From a virus, in the IMG/VR virus record IMGVR_UViG_3300032313_001231, positions 1 to 41,421 of that record: a DNA stretch of 41,421 nucleotides. One strand, given 5' to 3'. The notes under the pieces were generated by a model, which was not told where the DNA came from, made no database searches, and was given only the letters and a program-made list of their open reading frames with translations. Positions 5,343 to 39,962 of this stretch are shown here, in pieces. The first letter of the stretch is position 1, and every line of letters starts with the position of its first letter. Made by a program: the position numbers and the translations under genes.

Positions 5343-5344
5343 TT

Positions 5345-11450: not shown

Positions 11451-13481
11451 ATGGCCTGGAATAGTTACAACAACAAATCACTTAATAACGAGTCAGCCAA
11501 GTCAGTTGGACCCGGCGCGCCCATTTCTCAAAATGCTGGCTACGCAGGAAAACCATACACCGACTCTTGGGATATTGAACGGGTCTACAGAGAAGGCGTA
11601 GCAAAAGTTACATGGGTGGCTAGATGCATAGACGCAATCGCAGGAAACCAAGCACGGCTACCAATTGTCTTAAAGAAAGAAAACTCTCCGTTTGGAGAAA
11701 TTCTTAAAGGTAGTAAAGCAAAAAACTCTGAAATATTAAAGATACTGAATACAAAATCTAACATGGGGGAAAATTCTTTCATCTTTAGATACAGGCTTTC
11801 TTCTCAGTTGCTCATGAGCACACGTGGAGTTTTCATAGAAAAAATCTATGGTAGAGACGGAAGAATAATTGCACTCAACCTTCTACCGCCACAAAGCACA
11901 GCGCCAATTCCTGACCCCAAGACTTTTGTTTCTGGCTACGAGGTAAGAATGCCCAATGGCGGAGTGGTGGTTATGAAGCCAAAAGACATTATTTGGGTTC
12001 GTAAGCCTCACCCTCTTGACCCATATCTTTCGATGACGCCGCTTGAGGCTGCTGGAATTGCTATAGAAATCGAGAACTTAGCAAAGGTTTACAACAGAAA
12101 CTATTTGATAAATGACGGAAGACCCGGTGGGTTGCTTGTTCTTCGTGGAGAAATTGACGAAGACGACAAGGACGAATTAAGAAATCGTTTTAGAGGAAAC
12201 CTTGCTCGCGCAGGCGCAACAACAGTCATATCGTCCGATGATGGCGCTGATTTTGTTGATACATCCGCCAGTCCCAGAGACGCTGCCTACATCCAAATGA
12301 GACAAATAACAAAAGAAGAAATCCTCGCTTCGTTTGGTGTTCCAGAATCAGTAATCGGAAATGCTTCAGGAAGAACTTTTTCAAACGCTGGGGAAGAAAT
12401 TAGAGTCTTCTGGAACGAAACAATGTTGCCTCACCTAGAGCCTATTGCTAGAGCGTTGGATGACCTTGACGAAGAATACTATGTTGATTTTGACGTAAGT
12501 AATGTTCCTGTTCTTATTCTGTATGAACAGGAAAGAAACAGGTATACGAAGGAAGAATTTACTCAAGGATTAATTAGCCTTAATGAGTACAGAGAAAAAA
12601 CTGGAAAAAAAGAAGTAGAGAGCGACCTTGCCGACTCCTTACTGCTTAATCCAAACCTAACTCCAATCGCCAACACCAAAAAGAAAATGGAAGAGCCGCC
12701 TCAGGCTGGAGTCATGGGTGGACCACCTGCACCTGGAATGCCACCTGGAGCACCCGGAATGCCGCCTGGAGCACCTGGGGACCCTGCCGCTCCTCCAGAC
12801 CCAACAACCATGCAAGGAGCAATGGACCTGGCTGCACAGAATCAGGGAATGGCTGCGCAAGCGGGATTACCTCCAGAAGGTCCTGAACAGCAAGCATCAA
12901 TGTCTACGGCACCACAACAAGCCTCTGCTCCTAGTGGTGCAATGCAAACAAAGTCTGTTGACGACAACGAAACTGCTGCTCTGGTGAGATGGACAGAAAT
13001 CCTAGACAGAAGCCTTGAAAGAATTTTCGAGCGTCAGCAAAGAGTTGTTCTTGAAAAAGCAGCGGGAGTAAAAGCCAGAAAACAATTAATGACTGGATTT
13101 CTTGACACTGAAACAATCTTTCAAACCGAAACATGGTCTAAGCAGATAGAGGAAGACGTCAAGCCTGTGCTTAACGCAATAATCACAGATGCTCAAAGTA
13201 TCTTTTCTGAAAAATCCCTTATTAGAACGCCAATCAAAAAAGAAGACATAGTTTCGCAGGTCAATTCTCAGATATTGAGAATCAAGGCAATAAACGAAGA
13301 AACTGCTCAAAGCATAAGCAATTCAATACTTGGAACACTAAATATCCATGACGAAGAAGATAAATCCACAGCATTGAGGGAATCCCTTGTCGGCATCTTT
13401 ACAAATCTTATTGCTAAAAAGAAAAACGAAATAGCCGAAGCAGAGACAAGAATTGCGTGGTCAATGGGCTCTCGCATGTAG
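11451..13481 (+). CDS. Portal protein (HK97-type)
   Basis: This encodes 676 residues. The core is an HK97-family portal: WDIERVYREGVAKVTWVARCID, IIWVRKPHPLDPYLSMTPLE, an 'AKVYNRNYLINDGRPGGLLV' stretch and LASFGVPESVIGNASGRTFS. These make the dodecameric ring at the capsid vertex through which DNA is packaged. Residues about 420-450 are a Pro/Gly/Ala collagen-like linker. A helical C-terminal region (ALVRWTEILDRSLERIFERQ) extends the protein well beyond the usual 400-500 residues. The start lies two bases after the preceding stop. Confidence 0.88.
   Translation: MAWNSYNNKSLNNESAKSVGPGAPISQNAGYAGKPYTDSWDIERVYREGVAKVTWVARCIDAIAGNQARLPIVLKKENSPFGEILKGSKAKNSEILKILNTKSNMGENSFIFRYRLSSQLLMSTRGVFIEKIYGRDGRIIALNLLPPQSTAPIPDPKTFVSGYEVRMPNGGVVVMKPKDIIWVRKPHPLDPYLSMTPLEAAGIAIEIENLAKVYNRNYLINDGRPGGLLVLRGEIDEDDKDELRNRFRGNLARAGATTVISSDDGADFVDTSASPRDAAYIQMRQITKEEILASFGVPESVIGNASGRTFSNAGEEIRVFWNETMLPHLEPIARALDDLDEEYYVDFDVSNVPVLILYEQERNRYTKEEFTQGLISLNEYREKTGKKEVESDLADSLLLNPNLTPIANTKKKMEEPPQAGVMGGPPAPGMPPGAPGMPPGAPGDPAAPPDPTTMQGAMDLAAQNQGMAAQAGLPPEGPEQQASMSTAPQQASAPSGAMQTKSVDDNETAALVRWTEILDRSLERIFERQQRVVLEKAAGVKARKQLMTGFLDTETIFQTETWSKQIEEDVKPVLNAIITDAQSIFSEKSLIRTPIKKEDIVSQVNSQILRIKAINEETAQSISNSILGTLNIHDEEDKSTALRESLVGIFTNLIAKKKNEIAEAETRIAWSMGSRM
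12721..12800 (+). repeat. Pro/Gly/Met-rich collagen-like tract in the portal gene
   Basis: The portal frame reads PGMPPGAPGMPPGAPGDPAA here. The P-x-G repetition is imperfect at DNA level and marks a flexible linker between the portal core and its C-terminal helical extension. The 1125-aa protein has a comparable PG tract. Confidence 0.75.
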
Positions 13482-13576
13482 TTTATGTATTCTAAATAAA
13501 TAAACTGTTTTAAAACTTGCAATGACATCACCCTTTGTTGGTTTATTATTCTCTTGTAACACTTTTGGAGACAACA
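13482..13576 (+). other. Leader between portal and protease-led giant gene
   Basis: This 95-base AT-rich gap ends with TTTTGGAGACAACAATG, a good ribosome site for the ATG at 13577. A TATTAT hexamer is present but without a convincing -35, and neither TACAAT nor ATACTTACA occurs. No terminator-like hairpin was seen, so portal and protease genes may be co-transcribed. Confidence 0.4.
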
Positions 13577-20469: not shown

Positions 20470-20532
20470 TTAGAGACTTAATTAATTTTGGTATTGACAC
20501 ATTGTCTATACTTACAACAACAGGAGTTAACC

Positions 20533-21945: not shown

Positions 21946-24900
21946 GTGGCCCGCATGACGGGGGTGAACTACAAAAAAATTCGCCACTACGCTCCTGGTA
22001 TACAATCTAAACAGACACGTCTCGACCCGGACTTTTCTGCAATATTATTTAAAGCCGGAGTTAAGGTAACGTCAAGCACGGAAAGATTAATTGCTGACGT
22101 CTCAGTAAAAGCGGCAATGCCTACCATGGGTTCTTCTTCTGGAGATTCCGACGGAAAGAAGCGCGGTCTTGAAAGCGCCAGTAAATCATCTCTGACCAAT
22201 TTGGGAGGAATTGTTTTTGACCCGCAAGGTAAAAAGACTCCAGGAAGTTACTTAAAACTTCACGTTACTGACCCAGAAAAAAAAGAGGCTTTGCTCTCAG
22301 CCGACCCTAAGCCAAACTTCGGATGGGTCAAATTTGGAGAAACAAACGCTCTCATAAAACCCAAAGGCGTAACGGTCAATGTCAGTAGACAGAAATTAGA
22401 CCCTAGAACAGGCAAGCCGATTGCATCTACTGGACATGACCCGTTTGACCCGTTTGCTCCCTATATGGATAACGGAATGCAGGTAAAAAGTCTTGGAAAG
22501 ACGATTGCCGAATCAAACGCAGGAAGAAAATTGATTCATTTCAGTGCGCGTGCTGCTGGTGTTGTTGTAGATGCTTTAGGAAAATTTAGGTGCCCTGAGG
22601 GAACTCCTGCGGCAAACAGATTTACCAATGAAAGAGGAGAAGGGTGTTTTGCCGTCAACTTGGACGCTCTCAAAAATATTGCAACGAATCTTGCTGCTAT
22701 CAATTCAAATTCTTCAGGGGAAAAAGGGACGTATGCAAACCTTGTTGAGACACTTACTCAATCAGGAGTAAATGTTGGAGAAATAAGAAGAATTTACAAA
22801 GAATCAGGAATGACTGGTCTTGTTGCTTTTGCTTCGGAATTAACCTCGGTTTTTACAAAACCACATTTGTTTGGTACTGAAAGATATGAGAACGACGCTT
22901 CATACAGAGATGCGATAGCACTCAAAATCAGGGAAGCAATAAATGCAACTGGCACCAGGAATGCTGTTGAAATAATGAAAGCAGTCAAGGAAGCAAAACA
23001 GGCAAAAATTGACGCCCTAATGCTTGAACTTAGAGTTACCAAGACTGGTGATGAAGAAAAAGACCTGATAGCGCTACTGGAAGCAATAAGCAAATCAGAC
23101 AAGTACGGCCTTCTTGCTGACGGACATGAGTTTCAATTTGGCGGAACAAAGGAATCGCATACAGAATTTCTGATAGATAATTTTTTTTACGCTCATGCAG
23201 ATGCAATACAAAAATACTTTCCCAAAATAACCAACAGTCAAGAACTGCAAGACCAGTACAAAATAGACAAAGATTCCGGAGTAGATACTCCGCTTATAAA
23301 AGCAATAGACGCGATGGTGTACCGCGAACAGCAAATGAGAATTGGTGCATTTGAACAAATAGCAATAGATGCAACAGAAGACCCTAAATCGTTTAAAAAA
23401 ACTAGAATAACAGTCAATCCAACAGGAAAAACAAACCAATACCCAATAGTTGACCCAAAGACTGGGGAAATTTTTAAGCCAGGTTACGACTTCTACGGAC
23501 TAAACGGCTCTGGCGGTGGTGAAGATTTATACATAGGTTCTGGACCCGCAATACTTGGACACCGTGAAGGACCACCAGAAGGTTCAATAGATTTATATAC
23601 GGCAACAGGCGGTACACAAGAGGAGCAATGGAAAGCACTTGCTGCTCAGATTCACGCTGATGAAACAGGAAGATATTGGGCCCATACCTACGGCACGGAC
23701 CTTGCTGCAATGATGGGAGGGGATAATCCATGGCGTAGTTTTGGAACACAAGCAGCGGCGCACGAGATGTATCACATTCAGCAAGTGCGAGCAATTTCGG
23801 ACTATTTAAAATTTCAGCAGAGCATTGGTACGGACATTGATGAATTGTTAAAAATTTACAAACTAAAAGACGGAACAAAAGTTAGTCCTGGAAAAACCAT
23901 TGACGACATGGATGGCGACGACCTAATGGCTCTGGCACAAAATTTTTTAGAACAAGCGGACCCTCAAATGTTAAGAGAGGCTCTTGGTGCCGACATAGAA
24001 GACCTGATAGAAGCAAGGCTTGACGCTGTAGCAGGTAGGTATTCCGGCGACAAACAGCAAGACGCACTGTATGCAATTAGGGATGGCAGCGCAAGACAGG
24101 GAAACGCCGAAAGAAGCGTTGCTCTTTTGGAAACACTTGCCGAAATTGCGGCTAATAGAAAAGTTGGCTTAATCGACGAAAGCGTTGACAAGTTAATTAA
24201 TCACGTCATAGGCGAAAAAGAAATAATTCCAGAATCTTTTAAGCCCCCTGTAATTCCTGGAGGAACTCCTATTCCTGATGTTCCTGTAGGACCACGTCCT
24301 GCAGCATGGGAGGGTTTGTGGTGGTCAAAAGACCAAATCAACGTACCCACCCCTAGTGGTTCGGGTGGTGGTTCGGGTGGGCAAAGAGGTCCATTTGACC
24401 CATTCAGTGGAAATAGAAACAGTGATTTGGCAAAAAAAATCAGAGAAGGAACACTGACGAACGAAGACCTGGATGAACTTCTTAACGGAAAAGATAAAGG
24501 GGATAAAAATAAAGACGGTTCCCCAAGAAGAGAAGGGGGAATATTAAAAACTTGGCGCGCGGCAAGAAATGTAAGAAAAGATAAGGACAATCCTCAAAAT
24601 TCCAAAGAAAAACAGAGGATGTTAAACGAGACTCTTGACGAATTACCTCTTGATGAAGAACAACTCAAGGCAATGATACAGAAACTACAGAATGGGGAAG
24701 TTCTTTCTCAAGAAGAAGAAGACAAACTTGTCGACAGTATTCAAAAATTGTCCGTCAGATATGACCAATTAATTGAAGATATGGAAAAAGTTCAAGCCGA
24801 ATACGACCAAGGCTGTCCCGACAGTATCAGTGCTAGAGACAACGCTTTTCCTAACAGGTATGACGATAAGTCCGGTTGTCAGTCATGGTATGAGGGGATG

Positions 24901-27900
24901 CAGGAGAAGATTGACAGACTTGAATTTGTTAAGGATAGAATCGGAAGAGGATTAAGACCCCAGATAAACGACATCTGGGATATTAATGAGTACGTAAAAG
25001 TAAACGGAAAACCCCCTTTTAATCTTAAATTTACACCAGACGCAAATGCTCCGCTTCGTTCCGGCGGAATGGCTTCTGCAAGCAGAATTTCAACTTTGCA
25101 GGACTCAAGACTTTCTCCAGAAGAAATATTCATAGCCTCTTCTGCAATGGACGAAGTTCCATCGTCCGTAATGTCTTCTATTGATGTTCCTGGTTATTTA
25201 GATGATGTCATAGAAATAAACGACACATTTTCATCTTACGGAATAGAACCACCAGCAGGAACGTCTTTTGACGACACCAAGACCATTGTTCCGCTATTGA
25301 GCGTTATTGACAAATCAATAGTTAGTGAAGATTTAATCGCAGAATTTGAAATAGACGAATCGGATTATTCGGTCGGTTCCGTAATAGAAACTTCCGGAGT
25401 TAGAAAACTGAGCACTATTGATTCTCCGCAAAACACGGTTGGGTTTGCAAGCACTTCTCGTGGAAGGGCAGCGGTAGTAGGAAGATTGCTTAATTCCAAA
25501 CAATCTCGAAAGTTAATGAGAACAATGGGTATTGACCCAGAAAACGAAGACCTGGTTTCATTGGCTGCAGAAACGGCACTGGCTTTTTCTGTGGGTGGTC
25601 CTGCTGGGGCGATAATACCGATAGCAAGAAGAGCAGGAAAAGACAGCGCTGAAAAAGCGCTACAAATGATGGTTTCAAGAGGTTGGATTACTCAATCAAT
25701 AGCCTCAAAAATTAGTTCACACGGTCTGGACAAAATTGCAAAAGAAGGATTGCCTGAAGAGATAATTCAACTAATGAAAAATCTTGGAGACTCTGTTTCA
25801 AGCAGAGAAAACAAAAACAGTGCATTAAGAATGGCCACGGCACTGAGAGAACGTTCAGACGAAATTAAAGAAACGTCAAAAAGAACGTTAAAAAATATCA
25901 AAGATAAAGTTTCAGAGATGAGAGAATCTTCGTCTGAAGAACTTGTCAGGGTATCCGGTCCCAAAGATGCTCGAAAAATTATTGACGGCAACCTACCGGC
26001 ATCGGTTAAAACAGAAAAAGAAGCGTACACAATCTTGACGGAACTTGCAAAAATGGCAAACGAAGCCAAAGAAAAGGGAACAGATGCTCCTAATTACGAT
26101 TTTTGTAAAGTTTCCATTCCGGGAACAAACTTGTTTTGCGGTGACTCTAAGGGAATCCCTAGAAAAAAAATGCCTCAGTTTAGTGGTGAGCCAACTCCCG
26201 GTTCACCAGCAGATTCAAGACCCAAAAACAAAAAGGGAGAAGTTGACGGAACAGATGACTTCATCAAACACATGGAAGCAAAGGGAATAAAAATTGAAGA
26301 AAAACAAGTTCTCGCTTCAGAACTAAGAGCATCACAAAATGAACTAGTTGGAGAAAAAGTTGCAGGAATGATGACCAATGAAGACTTTGACCCTGCAGGT
26401 GAAGCAATTTTTGTTAGCCGAGATGGTTATGTTATTGACGGTCACCATAGATGGGCTGCTCAGGTCGGTCGTGACCTTGAAGACGGAAACATTGGCGACC
26501 TTCCATTGAACGTAAGAGTTGTGGATATGGATATTGAAGAAGTACTTGAAGAGGCAAACAAGTTTGCTTCCGAATTCGGAATTGCTCCCAAAACAGCAGG
26601 AAACGATGCAGTTGCCGTAAAGTCAGTTTTTGTCAATATTAGATTTAAACAACTTGGCGAACCAATATTAAAACAAAATCAAAAACCAGAAGAAGAAAAA
26701 AGCACAAAGAAGCAAAAAGTAAGAGTCGTTGTACCCAAGGGCTCGAAGGCAAAAGTTGATAAATCCGGCGACATACTTATACCTCCTGGAAAAATGAAAG
26801 TAACCGGAATTGATGAAGACGGTGTTGCTGAAGCGGAAATAACAGAACAAATGTCTGCTGTTGATTACATGAAAAATGCAGAAAAACAACTTTCTGAAAA
26901 AATGAAAAACATTACTGACGAGAGAGTTAAAAAACTTATTTCTTCTGACATCACTAAATACAAGAAATCAAAAATAGATAAAATCATTTCTTCTCCCGAC
27001 AATGGTTATTCCAATACGTCTAATGGAGTTTTGGAAAAAGCAAACACGATAATTGAAAATGCCTCCAATATGGGATACGCACTCTTTAACGAAAAAGACG
27101 TTTATGTTTCTGGTCAAAAAATTCCAGTAACAGAATATTATGATTTATTCTTAAAATCAATTAATAATATAATTTTAGAGATAAAAAAAGATTTAGATAA
27201 TGATTTGTTTCCCGAAGATAAGCAACTTAACAGTTTCATAAAATCAAATTCAGAATCATACATATATTCAATATTGGAAGAAATGTCAGTTTCTTTATTT
27301 GAAAAAATAGACAGAAGAGCAAGAATATCAATGTCTCGTTCTTCTTTGCAAGAATTCTTAACATCTGGAAGAATTGCCAACGTCGATGTTGATAGCAAGA
27401 TGCTTTCCGAAATGAAGAAAAACAGAGACACGATAATAGGTGGAACGGTTTCTTCTACCGAATTTTCACTTACGCCAGTGAATTTAATGCATGAATCTAA
27501 AACAAGACTTATTGAAGAATCTTTGTATTTTGCTGGGACAAGGGTTGGTTCCGAAGAGTATGCAGATTACGGAAGAGGAATAGAAGTTGTTCTTAGGTCC
27601 GAGAACGCCAAGCGCATAGGCTATGGCCGTTTTGATAACGAAGAAAATGAAGGATTGTATTCCCTCATTACCGACGACGATAAACAAAGAATTGTTATGA
27701 CCATGTTTGGAAACGTTGTTAAAAATTCAAAACAAGCAAAAGAGACAATTCTTTTGGCAATTGATTCATACTTAAAGAAAGATTATTATAATTTCTTAAA
27801 GTCCGATGAAGGTGACACCCTAGAGGGTTTCATAGTTGGAGAAATAAACCTTAACGATATTGAGCACATCAAAATACCGGTGTCAATATTTAAAGTTACC

Positions 27901-28302
27901 AACAAACCCGTGTCACCGTCTCATCCTATTGCTGGCAAAAAAAGAATATCTAACATCTTTAAAAAAAGAGGGATGACAGATTCAGCAATAAAAGAGTTTT
28001 TTGATAAAGGCGGAATGATAGGCGGAGGCTTTAATCCAAAGTATTTAATTTATTTACTTGAAATTGAAGCAGCGCAAGAACTTAAAGATAGATTAATTTC
28101 GTTTGGTGTTCCTGAAGTAATATTTACCAACAAAAACGGAATTGACATCATGGCAGAAAAGACATGGTTTACTCCTGCTCCAGATTCTAAAAACGGTATA
28201 GACGCACTTAGAAAACTTGCCAAAATGGAAATAGATGTTATTATGGAAAAAACGGTTCCTAAGAACAAGGAAAATGCCAGAAAAGAAAAGTCGCTTCTAT
28301 GA
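21946..28302 (+). CDS. Giant polyvalent-type protein: zincin, ParB-like and ART-like domains
   Basis: This encodes 2118 residues from a GTG at 21946; an in-frame ATG at 21955 is an equally possible start. Segments in order: a paired-cysteine motif CPEGTPAANRFTNERGEGC (216-234); a zincin-like metallopeptidase with H606-E-M-Y-H610 in AAHEMYHIQQ and a later acidic helix (EARLDAVAGRYSG); a Gly/Pro linker; helical regions; one FASTS linker at 1167-1171; a ParB-like nuclease motif D1498GHHRWAA; a segment RVVVPKGSKAKV then ILIPPGKMKVTGID from 1593, matching the end of MuF/VIP2-type ADP-ribosyltransferases; and an unrecognised C-terminal domain (YGRGIEVVLRSENAKRIGYG). It lacks any known structural domain. 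Combined peptidase, nuclease and ART parts fit a phage polyvalent protein injected with DNA. Confidence 0.75.
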   Translation: MARMTGVNYKKIRHYAPGIQSKQTRLDPDFSAILFKAGVKVTSSTERLIADVSVKAAMPTMGSSSGDSDGKKRGLESASKSSLTNLGGIVFDPQGKKTPGSYLKLHVTDPEKKEALLSADPKPNFGWVKFGETNALIKPKGVTVNVSRQKLDPRTGKPIASTGHDPFDPFAPYMDNGMQVKSLGKTIAESNAGRKLIHFSARAAGVVVDALGKFRCPEGTPAANRFTNERGEGCFAVNLDALKNIATNLAAINSNSSGEKGTYANLVETLTQSGVNVGEIRRIYKESGMTGLVAFASELTSVFTKPHLFGTERYENDASYRDAIALKIREAINATGTRNAVEIMKAVKEAKQAKIDALMLELRVTKTGDEEKDLIALLEAISKSDKYGLLADGHEFQFGGTKESHTEFLIDNFFYAHADAIQKYFPKITNSQELQDQYKIDKDSGVDTPLIKAIDAMVYREQQMRIGAFEQIAIDATEDPKSFKKTRITVNPTGKTNQYPIVDPKTGEIFKPGYDFYGLNGSGGGEDLYIGSGPAILGHREGPPEGSIDLYTATGGTQEEQWKALAAQIHADETGRYWAHTYGTDLAAMMGGDNPWRSFGTQAAAHEMYHIQQVRAISDYLKFQQSIGTDIDELLKIYKLKDGTKVSPGKTIDDMDGDDLMALAQNFLEQADPQMLREALGADIEDLIEARLDAVAGRYSGDKQQDALYAIRDGSARQGNAERSVALLETLAEIAANRKVGLIDESVDKLINHVIGEKEIIPESFKPPVIPGGTPIPDVPVGPRPAAWEGLWWSKDQINVPTPSGSGGGSGGQRGPFDPFSGNRNSDLAKKIREGTLTNEDLDELLNGKDKGDKNKDGSPRREGGILKTWRAARNVRKDKDNPQNSKEKQRMLNETLDELPLDEEQLKAMIQKLQNGEVLSQEEEDKLVDSIQKLSVRYDQLIEDMEKVQAEYDQGCPDSISARDNAFPNRYDDKSGCQSWYEGMQEKIDRLEFVKDRIGRGLRPQINDIWDINEYVKVNGKPPFNLKFTPDANAPLRSGGMASASRISTLQDSRLSPEEIFIASSAMDEVPSSVMSSIDVPGYLDDVIEINDTFSSYGIEPPAGTSFDDTKTIVPLLSVIDKSIVSEDLIAEFEIDESDYSVGSVIETSGVRKLSTIDSPQNTVGFASTSRGRAAVVGRLLNSKQSRKLMRTMGIDPENEDLVSLAAETALAFSVGGPAGAIIPIARRAGKDSAEKALQMMVSRGWITQSIASKISSHGLDKIAKEGLPEEIIQLMKNLGDSVSSRENKNSALRMATALRERSDEIKETSKRTLKNIKDKVSEMRESSSEELVRVSGPKDARKIIDGNLPASVKTEKEAYTILTELAKMANEAKEKGTDAPNYDFCKVSIPGTNLFCGDSKGIPRKKMPQFSGEPTPGSPADSRPKNKKGEVDGTDDFIKHMEAKGIKIEEKQVLASELRASQNELVGEKVAGMMTNEDFDPAGEAIFVSRDGYVIDGHHRWAAQVGRDLEDGNIGDLPLNVRVVDMDIEEVLEEANKFASEFGIAPKTAGNDAVAVKSVFVNIRFKQLGEPILKQNQKPEEEKSTKKQKVRVVVPKGSKAKVDKSGDILIPPGKMKVTGIDEDGVAEAEITEQMSAVDYMKNAEKQLSEKMKNITDERVKKLISSDITKYKKSKIDKIISSPDNGYSNTSNGVLEKANTIIENASNMGYALFNEKDVYVSGQKIPVTEYYDLFLKSINNIILEIKKDLDNDLFPEDKQLNSFIKSNSESYIYSILEEMSVSLFEKIDRRARISMSRSSLQEFLTSGRIANVDVDSKMLSEMKKNRDTIIGGTVSSTEFSLTPVNLMHESKTRLIEESLYFAGTRVGSEEYADYGRGIEVVLRSENAKRIGYGRFDNEENEGLYSLITDDDKQRIVMTMFGNVVKNSKQAKETILLAIDSYLKKDYYNFLKSDEGDTLEGFIVGEINLNDIEHIKIPVSIFKVTNKPVSPSHPIAGKKRISNIFKKRGMTDSAIKEFFDKGGMIGGGFNPKYLIYLLEIEAAQELKDRLISFGVPEVIFTNKNGIDIMAEKTWFTPAPDSKNGIDALRKLAKMEIDVIMEKTVPKNKENARKEKSLL

Positions 28303-28742: not shown

Positions 28743-29329
28743 CAACATGGTCTGAATACAGCGGTCGGGTCTCCGGTTTTAAATTTGAGCAAAAAATGCC
28801 ACAAGACTTGATACTGGACATACCTCAGGAAAAATTTACCGGCGACATAATGAAGGGTCGCGGTCCAAGAAGAGGAAACCTAGAGCGTCTTTTGCGCTAC
28901 TGGCGTCCTATTATGAAAAAATCTGGAGGCTTCACCAGGTGTAAGGCTATTCTTGCCGACCACCCGGAACTCTATCCACTAAGCAACATATGTGCATGGC
29001 TGCATCACGAAACAACTGGCCTATGGCCAAACGAGGGATGTCATCATCCAGACATGAAAAACTGCAAAAAGAAGATGAAAAAAATTTCTGGTTGGTCTGA
29101 TTCTGAATTCTCCAAAAGAGTGTCCAGGGCTGCTAAGGGAAAGCCTGGAAAGAAGTCAGACGACATAGACGTGGAATATAAATATGACAATTACGATGAC
29201 GTGGTTACCGCAGAGGACGAAGAGTACGCTGCAAAAGTAATGTCTGGCTTTGTGGATATGGAAGAAAATTTTTGCAAGACAATTATGGATGATGAAAACT
29301 GGGAACAAGAAGGAGAACCTAATGTTTGA
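28739..29329 (+). CDS. Cys/His-rich small phage protein
   Basis: This encodes 196 residues. After RGPRRGNLERLLRYWRPIMK comes GGFTRCKAILADHPELYP (C68) and LSNICAWLHHETTGLWP (C85, H89, H90), then C101-H-H and C109, followed by a helical region (SDSEFSKRVSRAAKGKPGKK) and an acidic tail. The combination of four cysteines and several histidines suggests metal binding. A 'C-x-W-L-H-x-x-x-T-G-x-W-P' module is recalled from other phage head-region proteins, but I cannot name a family. The start overlaps the previous stop (ATGA) and its end overlaps the next start by eight bases. Confidence 0.65.
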   Translation: MTTWSEYSGRVSGFKFEQKMPQDLILDIPQEKFTGDIMKGRGPRRGNLERLLRYWRPIMKKSGGFTRCKAILADHPELYPLSNICAWLHHETTGLWPNEGCHHPDMKNCKKKMKKISGWSDSEFSKRVSRAAKGKPGKKSDDIDVEYKYDNYDDVVTAEDEEYAAKVMSGFVDMEENFCKTIMDDENWEQEGEPNV

Positions 29330-31325
29330 TTCAAGTGATTTAAAATACGTTAAAAAAAGAATTTCTTTCATCGGCACAAAGTCCCTAAACCGGAACCTGT
29401 CTATTATTAAATTAAAACTAAACGGCGACCAAAATGTAATTGATTACAAAGCATTGTCTAGACGTTCGGGATTGACAAGAAAATACGGAGTCAAGGTTGG
29501 TCTACTGGGAACACACTCTCCGATAGGTCAAGGAGCGCAGGCTATTGGTTCTACCGTAATTCCAGGAAACATGAGTCCCATACGAAGCCCTATCAGGTCT
29601 GGCGCATGGGCTGCAATAACTCCCGGAAAACCAAACATTCCAGGCAGGGCACCTGGTGGCGATGGGGTATCTCGCTGTCCTGAGGGGTATCAATACGGAG
29701 GAAGATTTACGGATAATAGACTTTCTACTTGCGGAGCCAAACTTTTTGACCTCCCTTCTGCTCTCGGTTTAGCAATTGGGGCGATTAGAAAACTTGCTCG
29801 TGGTGTTGGTGCTGCAGCAAGAGTAGATTCTCAGCAAATTGGAGGAGAACCAATGCCTGAGAGCATTGTTCAGAGCCGCAGGCCTCAAATACCAAGAGTG
29901 GGTAACGAAAACAGAGCAGCCGGTATTGCTGCAGCAAAAAACCTAGTTTCCGAGATTGGTAGAGCCGATAAACCTGCAGTAAGAATGGTTCGCAAAGACG
30001 GTTTTGTACTAGAACCAGTTGTTGCTGCATCTGTTCTCCGTGCAATTCCAGACAACAGAGACATGGAGGGAGCCACGTATATTCTTTCTGTTCAAAGCGT
30101 TAATGAAATAGGTGGACAAGAACTTGGACTTCTATCAAACACGGGAATTACAAAATTAACTTATGTTATGGCTGGAGGGTCTCAAATAAATCTTGAGAAG
30201 AAAAGACCATTGACTGTTGGTGAAAGAAGAAAACTCGGAAGAACCGTTAACTCCGCTGCAAAAATTAGCGTAGAAAACGACCCAACCGCACGCCTTAAAG
30301 AAGTAGTCAACCAGACCGGCGACGGAATCGGTTATTCAGAGAACTTTGTCAACATTAAAAACCCAAATGAAATCGTGTCTAAAAATGGACGTTCAATACC
30401 AAGATGGGCAGATGAGTTATTTGGAAAAGGTAAGAAGGCAAAGCCGGTTGCTGAGTCACTCAGGGAAACCGATAGCGAATCTCAGATTGGAAAAAATGTT
30501 TCAAATATTGACAGTGCGGTTTCTATTATTTCAGGAGGCGGAAATCTTAACGAAATAGACCCAGTCGTACTCGGAGAAGCAATATCGAAAAGCAATGTAT
30601 TTAAATTACAAAAACTTGATGCCAAGAGAACGCTTGTTTCTGGTCCAAAAGGTTCCAAATACACGATGTATTCTCCTTCGGCAGAGTACGAACACATTGG
30701 TCAAAAGATTGCATCAGATTTTCAACAGTTTATGGGTCTGGAGTCTCCTGACGTGTTTTTTGTCGGCACGGGAACAAAAAGGAAATACCTTGTTGAAGAC
30801 CCAGGAAGCATTATTCGCGGGTATCAAGTAGATAGAAGAAAAACTTTCTCTGATTACGAACCAAGCGATGTTGCCAAAATGTTGGTTTCAGACTGGATTA
30901 CGGACCAGAGAGTAAGAGACCCTGGTTCAATCATTCCTGTTTCCAACGGGCAAGACACAAAGCCTGTTGTAACCAACAACTTTACTTCGCTGTTAACGGA
31001 TTTGGATAAAATCAAAATTACAGAGCGAACAAAGATGACAATTAAAAATTTCTTGGATTTGCCCGGTAATGACAAGTATTTATTGTATTATCAAAGATTA
31101 AAGAAAGAACAGCAATTGTCTTTTAGAAGAGAAATAGATGCTTTACTATTAAGAGCAAGAAAATTTAACTTTACCCAACTAAAAACAAGACTTTATAGCG
31201 ATGGTTCTTTGTCAAGTGCTGAGAAAACACATCTCAATATCGTGGGTAGAATTATTGAAACTAGAATCTCTATTTATGAAAACTCTAGACAAACATTTAT
31301 CGAAATTTTTGGAGACAAAAAATGA
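29322..31325 (+). CDS. 667-aa multidomain protein with paired-Cys motif and degenerate kinase-like domain
   Basis: The ATG at 29322 has AAGGAG upstream, so earlier in-frame starts inside the previous gene are rejected. In the N-terminal part lies CPEGYQYGGRFTDNRLSTC, a close relative of the motif in the 2118-aa protein. The middle is an alpha/beta region (MVRKDGFVLEPVVAASVLRA). From about residue 425 the pattern VSGPKGSKYTMYSPSAEYEH, then ASDFQQFMGLESPDVFFVG and VSDWITDQRVRD resembles the kinase domain of the 2283-aa protein. It keeps the layout but lacks a clear D-x-x-x-x-N and the later DSGGG, so it may be a pseudokinase. The next gene overlaps as ATGA. The kinase relation is tentative. Confidence 0.65.
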   Translation: MFDSSDLKYVKKRISFIGTKSLNRNLSIIKLKLNGDQNVIDYKALSRRSGLTRKYGVKVGLLGTHSPIGQGAQAIGSTVIPGNMSPIRSPIRSGAWAAITPGKPNIPGRAPGGDGVSRCPEGYQYGGRFTDNRLSTCGAKLFDLPSALGLAIGAIRKLARGVGAAARVDSQQIGGEPMPESIVQSRRPQIPRVGNENRAAGIAAAKNLVSEIGRADKPAVRMVRKDGFVLEPVVAASVLRAIPDNRDMEGATYILSVQSVNEIGGQELGLLSNTGITKLTYVMAGGSQINLEKKRPLTVGERRKLGRTVNSAAKISVENDPTARLKEVVNQTGDGIGYSENFVNIKNPNEIVSKNGRSIPRWADELFGKGKKAKPVAESLRETDSESQIGKNVSNIDSAVSIISGGGNLNEIDPVVLGEAISKSNVFKLQKLDAKRTLVSGPKGSKYTMYSPSAEYEHIGQKIASDFQQFMGLESPDVFFVGTGTKRKYLVEDPGSIIRGYQVDRRKTFSDYEPSDVAKMLVSDWITDQRVRDPGSIIPVSNGQDTKPVVTNNFTSLLTDLDKIKITERTKMTIKNFLDLPGNDKYLLYYQRLKKEQQLSFRREIDALLLRARKFNFTQLKTRLYSDGSLSSAEKTHLNIVGRIIETRISIYENSRQTFIEIFGDKK

Positions 31326-34467: not shown

Positions 34468-34839
34468 ATGAGCGATGAATTTATGGAAAAACACAAAGAG
34501 TATTCTCTTTATCTTGATTACCCTCCTTTTTCTACGTCTAGAAAAAAAACTGAAGAATACGCAGGGGATTGCAAGAAAGAAATTAACAGAATATTTTCTT
34601 TATCGGACGAGGAAAAAGAAGATGCAAGAATGTTTTCAACAGTTGCTGCCAAGTGGGCCGATGACCTTGATGAAGCGCGCCTGTATCAAAAAAGGTACGG
34701 CGACAGTATTAAAGGGAAAGAAGAAGCCCAAAAAGTAGTTTACGAAATGGAAGGCAGAATAGAAGCAATCAAAAATCACACAGATGAAGATGTTTACACC
34801 CCATACGGACGTGCACACCTGTTTGACCTGAACGACTGA
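34468..34839 (+). CDS. 123-aa helical protein of unknown function
   Basis: The start lies two bases after the preceding stop. The chain is charged and helical: KHKEYSLYLDYPPFSTSRKK, then YAGDCKKEINRIFSLSDEEK and AKWADDLDEARLYQKRYGDS, and a C-terminal YTPYGRAHLFDLND. No family was recognised. It sits between two giant effector-type genes, so it could be a partner or antitoxin-like protein, but no direct sign supports this. Confidence 0.62.
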   Translation: MSDEFMEKHKEYSLYLDYPPFSTSRKKTEEYAGDCKKEINRIFSLSDEEKEDARMFSTVAAKWADDLDEARLYQKRYGDSIKGKEEAQKVVYEMEGRIEAIKNHTDEDVYTPYGRAHLFDLND

Positions 34840-34855
34840 GATTTGACTATCTAAA

Positions 34856-37800
34856 GTGAATAATGAATTTATTTACAAACTGCTTGCAATAAGACAAGCA
34901 TCGAACATGGGTTGTAATGGCGCACACCAAAACACACACGGTGAATGGATTCCATGTTCTTCCATTAAGCAATATCTTTCAATCAATCAGCCCCAATTGG
35001 TTAAATCAAGAACAACAATTCTTGAAATGGAACGCAGGTCTTCTCTTAGAAAGAAAAAAGGGAAGAAAAGAAGAAAAGGGTGGGAAAAACTTCGTGAACG
35101 TGGTGTCGGTGGAATAGATAGCACTCTTGGGGTCGGACTTCATTCTTGGGATGGAAGACAGGGCAGAAATGTCAATTTGATACGGGGTGGAATAATACCG
35201 CCACGAACAAACGGTGCCATGTCTACAAAAACATTAGAAGAAAAAGGCGAACAATACTCTCCTCGTGACAACGACACTGACGTATTTATTGATATTGAAT
35301 CGGCCAGAAGAAGAGCCCGTCAAATTGGATGCATCGGGGTTAGCAGAAGAACGTCAAAATCCGGCAAAGCAGTTTGGATGCCATGCACCAACATGTCCGA
35401 TTACAACAACCTTACTGGCATGTCTGCTTTAGGAAAATTAAATCAAGAAAAACGAACACAATCAATAGTGAGAACTATATTGTCGAACGAACTAAAGAAA
35501 AGAAAAAAGAGTCTTGTAGAAGAGATACTCGGCAAAGCAATAGGACCAAAAATATCTGGGATTTCAAGATTTGCAGCAAGAAGTATCACTCAAAGATTTG
35601 ACCCCAAAGCAGAGGACGGGGATGGCGACGGAACCCTGCAGGATGGAACTACGTTCGAAAGACCCAATGTTCCTAATGTTCCAAAACTTGAACCCGCAAG
35701 AGAAACACCAGTTTCTAAATCGACCATATCTGCTGTTGGTAAATGGTTTAAATCAACCAGTAGTTCGGATAGGGAAAAGTTAACTGGAGGTTCAATAGAA
35801 GATTTCGGTGCAAGAGCAAGAAGCACAAGAGGTTTTGCCTCTTCTTCAAAACCTCCTCAAAAAGAATCTGTAAAAATTGAAGGTGTAGAAAACCCAGATG
35901 CCTCAGACACGAATCCATTCAGAAATTTGGGTGGCAGAAAAATGGGAGAAATAATTAGAGGTCTCGTTAAGCCGTCCAATAAAAACAAAAAAAAGAGAAC
36001 CACTTATCTGATTGGAGGAACAACCGGAGGTGGTAAATCAACAGTTCTTGACGACCACCTCGTTGTTCAGGGGCTTGTTCCATCAAGAGAAGAATCTGCT
36101 CATGTTGACCCAGATTTTATAAAACTTGGATTGCCCGGATACAACGATGGTGCAGGAGCGTCGATGGTTCACGATGAGTCACTCAGGTCTGCTCAACGGA
36201 CCATGGATGACGCAAGACAGGAAGGAATGGACGTTGTTGCTACTGGTGCTGGCTCAACAAGGCAGCGAGCGATGATTGCTCAGGCTAGACAAAACGGCGA
36301 CAGGGTTGTTGCCCACTGGGTGCATATTCCGGCAGAAGAAGCATCAAGAAGAATGAAGGAAAGACAGAAGGAAACTGGAAGAACAATACCTGACCAATCA
36401 AGTCATTTTGCCAACTCCATACCAAGAATGGTTTCTGACGCAACAGCCAATGGCGAGGTTGACGAGTTTTATATTTGGGATAACAATGTAGAAAAAGGTA
36501 AACCTCCAAGATTGATTGCATCTTTTAAAGATGGAAAATTAGAAATATTGGACCAAGAAAAACTTGACGAGTTTATGAAAGGTAACAAACTTTCTCCAAA
36601 AGCAAGAGAAGGAGATGTTCTTTCTGATGGAGAACTGGAAGCATTAAAAGAATCAGACGAGTTCTTGGGTACTACTTCTAGTTCAAAACCTAAAAAGGGC
36701 GGAAGGTATACACCGCCCAAAAATGCACCACAAAATAAACCATCTTCTCCGCTACCTGGCGCTCCAGGAGCAGTTCCGCCACCCGGTATTCCAGGAGCAG
36801 TTCCGCCACCCGGTATTCCAGGAGCAGTAGGAACTACGAATCAAGGCGCTATCGGTGCACGTAGTCCTTTTGGTGAAGACCCAGGTATGGGAATCAATAC
36901 GTCCCTATCTCAGATACAGGACATAGATAAAATAATAGAAGACCGTGTACTTGCTTTTGTTGCAAAACTAACTGACAGACTTACAAAAAAACGAGACGGT
37001 TCTCCTAAAGACCCACTCGGTTACGTAATAAAAAAACTTGCAAAAACGTTGCAAGGAAGTTCATACGCACGAGAAGAATCAATTGGTGGAAGAGAAGGCC
37101 CAGCGGCACCAATTTCAATATCACGCTTTTCACTAAAGGGACAACTTGACACACCAGAAGGTATTGCAAAAGTAGTAAAAAATTTTGTTCCAATTAGAAA
37201 AAATTCGGAAACGGATGATGATTTTGCTTCAAGACTTTTTGAAACAATACCTATTTTAAGGTATACGTTAATTTCCGGTAGACAAGATGGAGAAAGTCAG
37301 TTAAAAGATTTACTACAAAGAATTGGATATGACCCAGTTGAACAAAAAAATCTAAGAAAAATCTTGCAAGAAGAACTGACAAATAACAAAGCATTTAGGG
37401 AACTTGTTGAAGAATTTGGTCTTCCAATGTTTATTGGCGGCAACGGTATGCCCGACGGTCAACCAATGGGGGGCACTTCCGGTTACCATACTGCAGGTGC
37501 CGGTTTGGTTGTAATGAGTAAAGACCATGTTAAGAAGGGTAGTCACGAATCGATAGGGTCAACCCTTGAAAAACCAAAATTTGACACTCTTCAAGAAACG
37601 CTTAGACACGAGTGGTTTCATTATCTAGATGCAGTATTTATGGCTTCTGACTCAAAAACACTTGACGTTAGAAAACAGGTATACCTTGCAGGACTAACGG
37701 AACTAGCAAAAGACCCAGAGTCTGTTGTTAGAAAAATTATTGGCGGTAAAGATTTGCCTAAGTATTTAGAAGAAAGAATATTAGGCTCCCTAAGTCGGGA

Positions 37801-38233
37801 GATTAGAAAGGCCTATCCTGGGTGGAGTGAAGACAAGGTAAGAGTAGAAGCAATGGAATTTTTCTCTAAAGAATTGAAAGAACGAAGAGCGGAGTTTGTA
37901 GCACAATTAAATGACACCATAGACGGCATTTTGTTTGACGAAGACATGATTGATGAAATACTCAGGGACAGGGGTGGGGTCTTTGATGCAATTGCAGGAA
38001 AATATTCTGAGTATGCCAGGTTTGGTCTTCATGAACTCATAGCAGAGGTTGGAAGAATGATTACATCAACTCCGGCAGAAAGAGCAAATCCAAACAATAA
38101 TATTGGAAAAATAGATGATTCCACCGTTGATTTACTGGAATCACTATTCCCATCTATCGGTAGGTCTCAGTGGTTAAATATTATTAGAATTTCTTACCCT
38201 GGAATCCAGATAAAAGTTTTGAGGAACAAATGA
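34856..38233 (+). CDS. 1125-aa multidomain protein: zeta-toxin-like kinase plus zincin
   Basis: The start is GTG at 34856, directly after an in-frame stop, with a weak ribosome site. Two paired-cysteine motifs (GCNGAHQNTHGEWIPCSS and GCIGVSRRTSKSGKAVWMPC) occur in the first 180 residues, followed by the calcium-loop module at about 247-275 and one FASSS linker at 327. A zeta-toxin-like kinase spans about 380-555: Walker A G387-GTTGGGKST396, AHVDPDFIKLGLPGY, and HWVHIPAEEASRRMKER. Zeta toxins phosphorylate UDP-amino sugars or nucleotides. After a PG-rich linker comes a zincin-like metallopeptidase with H918-E-W-F-H922 and a later LHELIAEVGR, a possible third-ligand helix. The order suggests an injected multi-effector protein. 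Confidence 0.8.
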   Translation: MNNEFIYKLLAIRQASNMGCNGAHQNTHGEWIPCSSIKQYLSINQPQLVKSRTTILEMERRSSLRKKKGKKRRKGWEKLRERGVGGIDSTLGVGLHSWDGRQGRNVNLIRGGIIPPRTNGAMSTKTLEEKGEQYSPRDNDTDVFIDIESARRRARQIGCIGVSRRTSKSGKAVWMPCTNMSDYNNLTGMSALGKLNQEKRTQSIVRTILSNELKKRKKSLVEEILGKAIGPKISGISRFAARSITQRFDPKAEDGDGDGTLQDGTTFERPNVPNVPKLEPARETPVSKSTISAVGKWFKSTSSSDREKLTGGSIEDFGARARSTRGFASSSKPPQKESVKIEGVENPDASDTNPFRNLGGRKMGEIIRGLVKPSNKNKKKRTTYLIGGTTGGGKSTVLDDHLVVQGLVPSREESAHVDPDFIKLGLPGYNDGAGASMVHDESLRSAQRTMDDARQEGMDVVATGAGSTRQRAMIAQARQNGDRVVAHWVHIPAEEASRRMKERQKETGRTIPDQSSHFANSIPRMVSDATANGEVDEFYIWDNNVEKGKPPRLIASFKDGKLEILDQEKLDEFMKGNKLSPKAREGDVLSDGELEALKESDEFLGTTSSSKPKKGGRYTPPKNAPQNKPSSPLPGAPGAVPPPGIPGAVPPPGIPGAVGTTNQGAIGARSPFGEDPGMGINTSLSQIQDIDKIIEDRVLAFVAKLTDRLTKKRDGSPKDPLGYVIKKLAKTLQGSSYAREESIGGREGPAAPISISRFSLKGQLDTPEGIAKVVKNFVPIRKNSETDDDFASRLFETIPILRYTLISGRQDGESQLKDLLQRIGYDPVEQKNLRKILQEELTNNKAFRELVEEFGLPMFIGGNGMPDGQPMGGTSGYHTAGAGLVVMSKDHVKKGSHESIGSTLEKPKFDTLQETLRHEWFHYLDAVFMASDSKTLDVRKQVYLAGLTELAKDPESVVRKIIGGKDLPKYLEERILGSLSREIRKAYPGWSEDKVRVEAMEFFSKELKERRAEFVAQLNDTIDGILFDEDMIDEILRDRGGVFDAIAGKYSEYARFGLHELIAEVGRMITSTPAERANPNNNIGKIDDSTVDLLESLFPSIGRSQWLNIIRISYPGIQIKVLRNK
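35594..35680 (+). repeat. DGDGDG calcium-loop module, copy 3 (diverged)
   Basis: The protein reads RFDPKAEDGDGDG then LQDGTTFERPNVPNV. The acidic loop and the E/D-G-T-x-F-x-RP signature are kept, while several flanking residues differ from copies 1 and 2. Confidence 0.75.
36767..36828 (+). repeat. 27-bp exact tandem repeat (collagen-like GAVPPPGIP)
   Basis: Two identical 27-base units (36767-36793 and 36794-36820) and eight bases of a third encode GAVPPPGIP. It forms the linker between the zeta-like and zincin parts of the 1125-aa protein. The exact DNA identity indicates recent slippage or duplication. Confidence 0.9.
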
Positions 38234-38472
38234 CATCATTAAATTCAAAAGCAACATCTTCTGACATAAAGAAGATGAAAATTAACGAACTTGAACGTAT
38301 TATTGCTGCTTTAAGGGCTACGGGTCAAGACGAAGAAGCCGAAGAGTTAGAGGAAATTAAGCCAACCATTGATGGATTAATTGAAGATTTATACAGTTTA
38401 GTTGACAACGAGCCAGACGAAATAATCAAAAAACTCTTTGGTTCACGAATTTCCAAATTAGACAAACCTTAG
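38230..38472 (+). CDS. 80-aa helical protein before the major capsid gene
   Basis: It starts at an ATGA overlap with the preceding gene. The sequence is acidic and helical (INELERIIAALRATGQDEEAEE, then TIDGLIEDLYSLVDNEPDEI). No family was recognised. The 125 bases after it carry the putative capsid promoter and leader. A small assembly chaperone is possible. Confidence 0.62.
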   Translation: MTSLNSKATSSDIKKMKINELERIIAALRATGQDEEAEELEEIKPTIDGLIEDLYSLVDNEPDEIIKKLFGSRISKLDKP

Positions 38473-38597: not shown

Positions 38598-39962
38598 ATG
38601 TCAGACCAAGCAAGACTTTCAGAATTGCAATCTGCCCTTCGCGCCAAGATGGCCGATAACAAGGCAATTGCAGACTCGTTCCGTGTAGAAGACGGAACCG
38701 TTGTTGTTTCAGCACAACAAAAATCAGCATTCGACAAAAACATGTCAGATATCAAGGAAATCAAGAGCCTTATTGAAGGCGTTGAAGCAATGAACACAAT
38801 TGAGCAGTGGGGTTCGCAAGCACCAACTGAATCAGTTGCTGTTGCCGCTGCTGCAGGCTACTCAGTAAAGGGACTCGGAAGAAACACCAGCATTGGTGAC
38901 CTTTTCCTTGCATCCACAGAATTCAAGAGCCTTCAGAATGGTAAGAACGGTGCAAACATGGTTTCACCTTTCCAGATTCAGGCTTCTTTGACAACCGGCA
39001 TGCGCTTCAAGGATGTCTTTTCAGACCTTCCAGGCGGCGTAGGCAGCGGAACGATGGGACACGGCGCAGATGCAATCTTCGGCGGCGTTCAGCGTGACCC
39101 AATGGTAATGCCACCACAGCGCATCAAGCGCGTTCGTGACTTGTTCCCAGCACGCACCACAACTGCTGCTGTTATTGAATACTTCCGTATGCTTGGCTTC
39201 ACAATGCCAGGCGGCGGAACAAACAATGCTGGAACAGTTCCTGAGCGCAATGCAGCAGGTTCAGCATTCGGTTCAAAGCCACAGTCTTCAATGGTATTCG
39301 AAGGCCACCAGGCCCCAGTACGTACCATTGCTCACTGGGAAGCAGCACACCGTAACGTCCTTGCAGACGAGCCACAGTTGCGTTCAATCATCGACAACGA
39401 ATTGATGTACGGTCTCCGTCTTCAAGAAGATGCACAAATCCTCAACGGTGACGGTCAAGGCGAAAACCTTACTGGTGTTCTTCAGACTTCAGGTATCCAG
39501 AACTACTCATGGTCGTCAGGCGCATACTCTGCAACAGCAGGAATGTCAGACACCAAGGCTGACGCAATCCGTCGTGCCGCTACTCTGGCGTTCTTGGCTT
39601 ACTACGAGCCATCTGGTGTTGTAATGCACCCGAACGACTGGGAAGACATTGAGTTGACCAAGGACGGCAATGGCCAGTATCTCGTTGCAGTTTCAGTTGC
39701 AATGGGTGGCGAGCCAAAGGTATGGCGTTTGCCAATCGTTGAAACTCCTGCAATTCCAGAAGGAACAGCCCTTGTCGGCGCGTTCGGTACTGGTGCTCAG
39801 TTGTATGACCGCGAACAAGCAAACATTCGTATCAGCGAACAGCATGCTGACTTCTTCGTACGCAACGCAATCGTTGTGCTCGCAGAACAGCGCCTCGCTC
39901 TTGCGGTAAAGCGCCCAGAGTCATTCGTCAAAGTATCATTTGACGCTGCTCCATCAGCCTAA
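38598..39962 (+). CDS. Major capsid protein (HK97 fold)
   Basis: This encodes 454 residues with ACCAGGAG upstream. Residues 1-70 are helical and charged (LSELQSALRAKMADN, then FDKNMSDIKEIKSLIEGVE), the delta/scaffold-like N-terminus usually removed by the prohead protease. The core shows HK97-type elements: RDLFPARTTTAAVIEYFRM, MVFEGHQAPVRTIAHWEAAH, ILNGDGQGENLTGVLQ, VVMHPNDWEDIELTKD and the C-terminal FVRNAIVVLAEQRLALAV. The codons look more regular and GC-richer than in the giant genes, as expected for a highly expressed gene. It is followed at once by a strong terminator. Confidence 0.92.
   Translation: MSDQARLSELQSALRAKMADNKAIADSFRVEDGTVVVSAQQKSAFDKNMSDIKEIKSLIEGVEAMNTIEQWGSQAPTESVAVAAAAGYSVKGLGRNTSIGDLFLASTEFKSLQNGKNGANMVSPFQIQASLTTGMRFKDVFSDLPGGVGSGTMGHGADAIFGGVQRDPMVMPPQRIKRVRDLFPARTTTAAVIEYFRMLGFTMPGGGTNNAGTVPERNAAGSAFGSKPQSSMVFEGHQAPVRTIAHWEAAHRNVLADEPQLRSIIDNELMYGLRLQEDAQILNGDGQGENLTGVLQTSGIQNYSWSSGAYSATAGMSDTKADAIRRAATLAFLAYYEPSGVVMHPNDWEDIELTKDGNGQYLVAVSVAMGGEPKVWRLPIVETPAIPEGTALVGAFGTGAQLYDREQANIRISEQHADFFVRNAIVVLAEQRLALAVKRPESFVKVSFDAAPSA

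What the first reader, a model, noticed from the sequence alone, without database searches (positions are those of the whole stretch)
36000..38000. Zeta-toxin-like kinase fused to a zincin
GGTTGGGKST, AHVDPDFIKLGLPGY and HWVHIPAEEASRRMKER match zeta toxins, which phosphorylate UDP-N-acetylglucosamine or related compounds. HEWFH near 918 indicates a second enzyme in the same chain. No epsilon-type antitoxin gene was seen nearby; the 123-aa and 80-aa helical proteins flanking it are candidates for an inhibitor.
Basis: partly seen in the sequence, partly recalled or inferred. Interest (0 to 1): 0.72.

Follow-up and report, generated by a model that had tools for sequence, protein, structure and literature searches.

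The report
Phage head polyprotein carrying zeta kinase
A bacteria-infecting virus encodes, next to its capsid gene, a large protein with a zeta-toxin-like kinase and a swappable protease domain, and the whole gene block is dotted with a short peptide motif that differs from virus to virus but is shared across sites within each, as expected if a protease cuts these proteins into injected effectors.

Summary
ORF 34856-38233 (+, 1125 aa) carries a Zeta_toxin domain (Pfam E=2.8e-13, active-site motifs intact) and, 400 residues on, a zincin (HEWFH...Y...HELIAE; invariant in ten homologous segments). The ORF is the last big gene before the major capsid protein in a tailed-phage head module (portal, S78 protease fusion, zincin/ParB protein, zeta protein, MCP) conserved in 14 related uncultured phages. 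It is not an epsilon-zeta toxin-antitoxin pair; it fits the 'polyvalent' head-delivered effectors of Iyer 2017.

Two further results. (1) Zeta is the constant core and the C-terminus is swappable. The 80-aa downstream gene exists only with the zincin (5/5 versus 0/9); the 123-aa upstream gene always precedes zeta (14/14). (2) Each phage repeats its own tetrapeptide across its head polyproteins (GFAS, GFSS, GLRS, GMAS, GLAS, GMRS, STRS) in linkers, bracketing zeta in several. Letters change together within a phage (0/10000 permutations) while codons drift freely. This is best read as cleavage sites of a co-evolving protease. Cleavage, packaging, injection and kinase substrate are inferred, not shown.

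The parts
34856..38233 (+). Zeta/zincin head-module protein, 1125 aa, GTG start
   Evidence: orthologues directly upstream of MCP
34910..35386 (+). two DUF3721 repeats (GC.G...W.PC) at aa 19-34 and 158-177
   Evidence: Pfam PF12518 3.8e-11, two stretches; positions
35594..35665 (+). DPKAEDGDGDG...FERP module (weak phrog_7924 match), shared with the 2297-aa and 1047-aa proteins
35831..35842 (+). GFAS site just before the zeta domain (orthologous sites in relatives: GLAS, GMAS, GLSS)
35972..36406 (+). Zeta_toxin kinase domain by Pfam (aa 373-517); conserved block runs on to DEFYIWDN at 36461-36484
36668..36850 (+). degenerate site GTTSSS (GLASSS in G001; GLAS/GMAS in G009/G007) and Pro-Gly-rich linker between the enzymes
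37262..38230 (+). zincin region; HEWFH 37607-37621, HELIAE 38030-38047; absent in 9 of 14 phages compared
34468..34839 (+). 123-aa YPPF protein, candidate partner of the zeta ORF
   Evidence: present in 14/14 directly upstream; no family match
38230..38472 (+). 80-aa protein, ATGA overlap with the zincin ORF, candidate partner of the zincin
   Evidence: 5/5 with zincin, 0/9 without
38598..39962 (+). major capsid protein
   Evidence: Pfam PF05065 7.8e-43; 47% identity to Gordonia phage MCPs
13535..20428 (+). 2297-aa polyprotein; S78 prohead protease at aa 35-180; GFAS at nt 15125, 17786, 18014; true start probably ATG 13577
   Evidence: Pfam PF04586 9e-11, phrog_80 1.3e-29
21946..28302 (+). 2118-aa polyprotein; second zincin HEMYH (nt 23761) + ETLAE; GMAS nt 25066, GFAS nt 25441; ParB-like DGHHRWAA
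31322..34465 (+). 1047-aa polyprotein with DGDGDG module and GFAS at nt 32543
29250..31325 (+). 691-aa head-module protein with CPxG...GGRFT Cys motif, conserved in relatives
11451..13481 (+). portal protein
   Evidence: Pfam PF04860 7.1e-49

Best explanation
The gene encodes an internal head protein of a probably actinobacterial tailed phage: a polyvalent effector precursor. Its constant N-terminal part (two DUF3721 motifs and a DGDGDG loop) probably targets it to the prohead. During head maturation a phage protease probably cuts it, and the other head polyproteins, at the phage-specific G-[FLM]-x-S sites, freeing a zeta-type kinase and a C-terminal accessory enzyme (here a zincin). Both would be packaged and injected with the DNA. 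The kinase would phosphorylate a host metabolite, most likely a nucleotide-sugar of cell-wall synthesis, to weaken or re-route the host early in infection. The 123-aa and 80-aa neighbours would keep kinase and zincin silent or folded in the producing cell. Shown by sequence: domains, intact catalytic motifs, head-module setting, co-occurrence of partners, C-terminal swapping, concerted motif. Inferred: cleavage, packaging, injection, substrate, inhibitor role.
For: Zeta family match with active-site motifs conserved in 12 phages. Strict synteny: portal, S78 fusion, zincin/ParB protein, zeta protein, MCP. C-terminal swap: G004 and G008 are near relatives (S78 domains 96% identical), yet G004 has zincin plus small ORF and G008 another C-terminus and no small ORF. 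Phage-specific tetrapeptides, 4-24 copies against 0.08-0.4 expected, mostly in head polyproteins, in regions poor in order-promoting residues. Letters at motif positions 2-3 agree within a phage across 11 orthologous sites at 0.68 versus 0.38 permuted, 0/10000. Codons at the sites are freely synonymous, so selection is on the peptide. Sites bracket zeta in G007 (313, 586) and G009 (323, 605). Precedents: polyvalent proteins, with zeta-like kinases fused to phage MuF domains and zincins proposed as processors (PMC5512222); SPN3US gp245 cutting head-internal proteins at AXE (PMC10052503).
Against: Motif choice is not absolute (G004 mixes GFSS with GLAS, GMAS, GMRS). In the window only one exact site lies in the zeta ORF. 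The motif also occurs in tape-measure proteins of G006 and G009. No virion proteomics is known to me for these uncultured phages. Foldseek gave no significant PDB match for the zincin.
Confidence: 0.6

Rival explanations
1. The protein is packaged and injected whole; the repeated tetrapeptide is a docking peptide (for example for a scaffold or internal-core partner that differs between phages) and not a cleavage site.
For: Sites are short and in linkers; the MCP boundary does not carry the motif; some zincin-bearing transferred proteins are delivered uncut (N4 RNAP, TraC1; PMC5512222).
Against: Sites fall between enzymatic domains and bracket zeta, and 13-19 copies spread over several proteins are more than docking needs; no phage-specific partner was identified.
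Confidence: 0.25
2. A toxin-antitoxin or polymorphic-toxin cassette carried by a temperate phage: zeta or zincin is kept in check by the 123-aa or 80-aa neighbour and acts on competitors or in addiction, as proposed for MuF toxins.
For: Swappable C-terminus with a small downstream gene present only with the zincin, 5/5 versus 0/9; MuF toxins show the same layout, 20% with a metallopeptidase domain (PMC5576092).
Against: No MuF domain; zeta is kept in every relative and embedded in the head operon; no epsilon-type match for the 123-aa protein; temperate lifestyle not shown.
Confidence: 0.2
3. The zeta-like domain is a structural or assembly NTPase of the head and not a host-directed kinase.
For: Universal retention next to the MCP; weak matches to phage ATPase and terminase profiles.
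Against: Match is specific to Zeta_toxin with the DPD and Arg motifs kept; in Mycobacterium phage Phrappuccino gp57 a zeta domain (4e-17) sits at the far end of an otherwise different protein.
Confidence: 0.12
4. The repeated motif is a DNA-level repeat (recombination or gene-conversion site) that happens to be translated.
For: Copies sit at domain junctions where shuffling occurs (inference).
Against: Codons at the sites vary freely, including TCN/AGY serine and CGN/AGR arginine, and flanking DNA is unrelated.
Confidence: 0.02

Closest known systems
Polyvalent proteins of phages and conjugative elements (Iyer et al. 2017, PMC5512222)
   Same: Large multidomain proteins in the portal-terminase context; zincin most common domain; zeta-like kinases noted, some fused to phage MuF domains; packaging and injection proposed.
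   Different: Here the domains are spread over a conserved block of proteins that share one phage-specific repeated tetrapeptide; zeta is a constant core beside the MCP without MuF.
MuF polymorphic toxins (Jamet et al. 2017, PMC5576092)
   Same: Head-module protein, variable C-terminal enzyme incl. metallopeptidases, small ORF downstream with the toxin domain.
   Different: No MuF domain; carrier has DUF3721 and DGDGDG modules and a constant internal zeta kinase.
Epsilon-zeta / PezAT toxin-antitoxin (1gvn, 3q8x)
   Same: P-loop kinase family with Walker A, acidic and Arg motifs; a small gene directly upstream.
   Different: Zeta is inside a 1125-aa head protein; upstream protein matches no antitoxin family; not a stand-alone operon.
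Prohead-protease processing of ejection proteins (T4 gp21; SPN3US gp245 at AXE, PMC10052503)
   Same: One short motif repeated in several head-internal proteins of one phage.
   Different: Motif letters differ between close phages and change in concert; MCP boundary lacks it; sites divide effector domains and not only propeptides.
Mycobacterium phage Phrappuccino gp57 (MK937592)
   Same: Zeta domain (Pfam 4.1e-17) in a large protein two genes after the MCP of a cultured M. smegmatis phage.
   Different: Different neighbourhood, no DUF3721 match, no repeated tetrapeptide.

Membership tests
Zeta toxin kinase (PF06414) | profile match above curated cut-off | tested here: met
   50.2 bits vs 22.3
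Zeta toxin kinase (PF06414) | Walker A, catalytic-Asp motif and Arg motif intact | tested here: met
   GGTTGGGKST, VDPDFIK, A..RR...R conserved in 12 phages; weak match to solved zeta 1gvn E=0.01
Zeta toxin kinase (PF06414) | phosphorylates UDP-N-acetylglucosamine or related sugar | not testable with these tools
   needs biochemistry
Epsilon-zeta toxin-antitoxin | adjacent epsilon/PezA antitoxin | tested here: not met
   123-aa and 80-aa neighbours match no antitoxin family, though both are consistent partners
Zincin metallopeptidase (polyvalent MPTase type) | HExxH plus downstream Tyr and ExxAE | tested here: met
   H, E, H, Y, E, E invariant in 10 sequences; homologous segments in L054, L031, L010
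Zincin metallopeptidase (polyvalent MPTase type) | zincin fold | tested here: inconclusive
   AF2 pLDDT 80, pTM 0.73; no significant PDB hit, though lethal-factor-type zincins have the highest probability (0.21) among the PDB rows shown; BFVD hit to an unnamed phage protein 1.9e-4
MuF polymorphic toxin | MuF domain | tested here: not met
   no MuF match in Pfam scans
MuF polymorphic toxin | variable C-terminal domain with small downstream gene | tested here: met
Polyvalent protein | two or more effector-type domains in one polypeptide in a phage packaging context | tested here: met
   zeta plus zincin between portal and MCP
Polyvalent protein | delivered into the host with DNA | not testable with these tools
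   needs virion proteomics
Prohead-protease-processed head protein | recurrent motif shared by several head proteins | tested here: met
Prohead-protease-processed head protein | same motif at the MCP maturation boundary | tested here: not met
   MCP N-termini compared, motif absent
Prohead-protease-processed head protein | actual cleavage at the motif | not testable with these tools
   needs mass spectrometry

The most novel reading that the evidence does not exclude
The phages run a polyprotein effector arsenal in which one phage-encoded protease and dozens of G-Phi-x-S cleavage sites, spread over several giant head proteins, co-evolve so fast that each lineage has its own cutting code; cleavage releases separate injected enzymes (zeta kinase, zincins, ParB-like and others) inside the capsid.
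Probability: 0.45. Interest if true: 0.82.

Novelty: new variant of a known kind. Interest (0 to 1): 0.64.

Why it matters
Polyvalent and MuF-type head effectors have been predicted for years, but how their many domains are separated has stayed open. A phage-specific tetrapeptide repeated at domain junctions gives a concrete, testable processing code, and it predicts fragment boundaries for otherwise unannotated giant head proteins. It also suggests how a zeta-type toxin kinase can be carried without an epsilon antitoxin: as packaged cargo with dedicated small partner genes.

Tried and rejected
Whole-ORF search of cultured phages: no match. PDB sequence search for the zincin: only chance hits. 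First zincin model too poor for a fold match; a second with a better alignment improved confidence but still gave no significant PDB match. Pfam on the five zincin segments: nothing. DNA-repeat explanation of the motif: rejected by free codon choice. Motif at the MCP boundary: not found. Same recurrent-motif test on cultured actinophages Gray, Cantare, GMA6, Phrappuccino and on DSL-LC01 (with a 3289-aa head-module protein): no comparable motif; the ARTP repeat in Gray is a repeat inside one tail-protein gene. Telling the S78 protease from the 2118-aa zincin as motif reader: undecided. Both are present in all 12 phages compared; S78 is conserved (65-100% identity between phages) while the zincin is very divergent (20-96%).

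Full report
What is there. Pfam finds Zeta_toxin at aa 373-517 (2.8e-13) and two DUF3721 repeats at the N-terminus. The C-terminal 320 or so residues hold HEWFH (aa 918) and HELIAE (aa 1059). No Pfam family or solved structure matches this part by sequence, but an alignment with homologous segments from other phages keeps exactly H, E, H, Y, E and E invariant, with Y and the first E seven residues apart, the pattern I know from lethal-factor-type gluzincins (own knowledge). In the PDB fold search, lethal-factor entries had the highest probability among the rows shown, but not significantly (0.21, E 2.5), and the best viral match is an unnamed phage protein (E 1.9e-4). Iyer et al. report the same superfamily link for polyvalent zincins (PMC5512222). 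I call it a zincin by motif; the fold test is inconclusive.

Setting. The window is an IMG/VR virus fragment. Minus-strand genes end with a terminase-like ORF at 9860-11164 (sequence reading). Plus-strand genes run portal, a 2297-aa protein starting with an S78 prohead protease, a 483-aa acidic protein, a 2118-aa protein with its own zincin (HEMYH...ETLAE) and a ParB-like DGHHRWAA motif, two small proteins, a 691-aa and a 1047-aa protein, a 123-aa protein, the zeta ORF, an 80-aa ORF and the major capsid protein. The MCP's closest cultured relatives are Gordonia and Brevibacterium phages at 47%, and distant zeta relatives in genome assemblies lie in an Acidimicrobiia and an Actinomycetota MAG, besides one Bacillota MAG, so an actinobacterial host is likely (inference).

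Relatives. Scans of viral contigs found the zeta ORF in about 20 contigs. I fetched head modules, whole or in part, of 14. In the modules read, the order of large genes is kept and the zeta ORF is the last large gene before the MCP. Active-site motifs of zeta are kept in all 12 phages where a pattern search found the block, down to 35% identity. Behind zeta the C-terminus differs: zincin in the window, G001, G002, G004, G005; an unrelated domain of about 190 aa in G007, G008, G009; little or nothing in G006 and G010. In G011 a 2763-aa version puts a related zincin before zeta; G011 is not in the counts that follow. The 80-aa ORF overlaps the zincin stop codon (ATGA); a small ORF there is present in 5/5 zincin phages and 0/9 others, and the gap to the MCP shrinks from about 360 to 91-223 bases when the zincin is missing. 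Homology of the small ORFs is clear within subclades and marginal between window and L007. G004 and G008 show the swap within a close pair. The 123-aa YPPF protein is directly upstream of zeta in 14/14, window included. Some contigs are near-identical (G004/G005, G014/G015), so the counts are not independent events.

The repeated motif. Counting tetrapeptides in each phage's head-module proteins gives a different leader per phage: window and G001 GFAS, G004/G005/G008 GFSS, G006/G013 GLRS, G012 GLRS and GLSS, G007 GMAS, G009 GLAS, G014/G015 GMRS, G011 STRS, with up to 24 copies against 0.08-0.4 expected. In the window, G005 and G008 it ties with or follows low-complexity strings. For the window alone the excess is modest (6 vs 0.15; 0.002 after correction for all tetrapeptides) and for G005, G008 and G013 it does not survive correction; the strength lies in the set. 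The cross table of motifs against phages is nearly diagonal. Outside the head module the motif is rare, except in an additional 3112-aa polyprotein of G009 (10 copies; three zincins, NUDIX, DGDGDG) and in tape-measure proteins of G006 and G009. Sites lie in stretches poor in order-promoting residues (all 12 phages tested, p 0.006 or less). They occupy orthologous places in different phages with different letters. Over 11 orthologous sites, agreement at motif positions 2-3 is 0.68 between sites of one phage and 0.38 when letters are permuted among phages within each site; none of 10000 permutations reached it. Independent drift at each site cannot give this; a trans-acting reader can. Codons at the sites are free, so the peptide is selected, not the DNA. 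Limits: sites entered the test because they carry the general form, and the phages sampled are few lineages.

Mechanism. A protease is the simplest reader of a peptide repeated at domain junctions in capsid-module proteins, and SPN3US offers a precedent (PMC10052503). In G007 and G009 two sites bracket zeta; in the window the second is degenerate (GTTSSS). The S78 protease and the zincin of the 2118-aa protein are both present in every phage compared. The MCP boundary does not follow the motif, which speaks for the zincin or for a docking role. I hold cleavage more likely than docking. The freed kinase would then be injected; cell-wall precursor phosphorylation is the best guess by family, as Iyer et al. 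proposed for phage zeta fusions (PMC5512222), but it is untested.

Known or new. Zeta kinases and zincins in phage head proteins are known in outline, so the finding itself is a further case of polyvalent, MuF-like head effectors. It lacks MuF and an epsilon-type antitoxin. New to me, and not seen in the paper searches made, is the lineage-specific, concertedly changing tetrapeptide and the linkage of the 80-aa gene to the zincin. Cultured actinophages examined do not show the motif, so it looks like a trait of this phage group.

Noticed in passing
window 21946-28302: 2118-aa protein holds a second, conserved zincin (HEMYH...ETLAE) and a ParB-like DGHHRWAA region within a stretch matching phrog_2859 (5.5e-18).
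   Followed up: partly
window 13535-20428, aa about 1510-1750: Kinase-like region (GWKKVGGAGGLNEASQ...) of the S78 polyprotein matches parts of large proteins in many cultured phages, some annotated ADP-ribosyltransferase; the 691-aa protein has a similar-looking region.
   Followed up: partly
window 34910, 35327, about 29676, about 41141: Several head-module proteins carry short paired-cysteine motifs (DUF3721; CPEG..GGRFT..C; CWEGYKQVG..PNC) and others an excalibur-like DGDGDG loop; these may be packaging tags.
   Followed up: partly
L054:8355-17690 (-): G009 has an extra 3112-aa polyprotein away from the head module with 10 GLAS sites, three zincins, a NUDIX and a DUF3626 domain.
   Followed up: partly
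L095:13601-16864: Cultured Mycobacterium phage Phrappuccino gp57 ends in a zeta domain (Pfam 4.1e-17), annotated only as hypothetical; its middle looks ADP-ribosyltransferase-like by eye.
   Followed up: partly
window 3492-6130: Two ParB-like ORFs flank a PAPS-reductase-like ORF on the minus strand, by sequence reading only.
   Followed up: no
window 20488-21939: Very acidic 483-aa protein with a weak PepSY match (1.5e-4) and paired cysteines, kept between the two largest polyproteins in the modules read.
   Followed up: no
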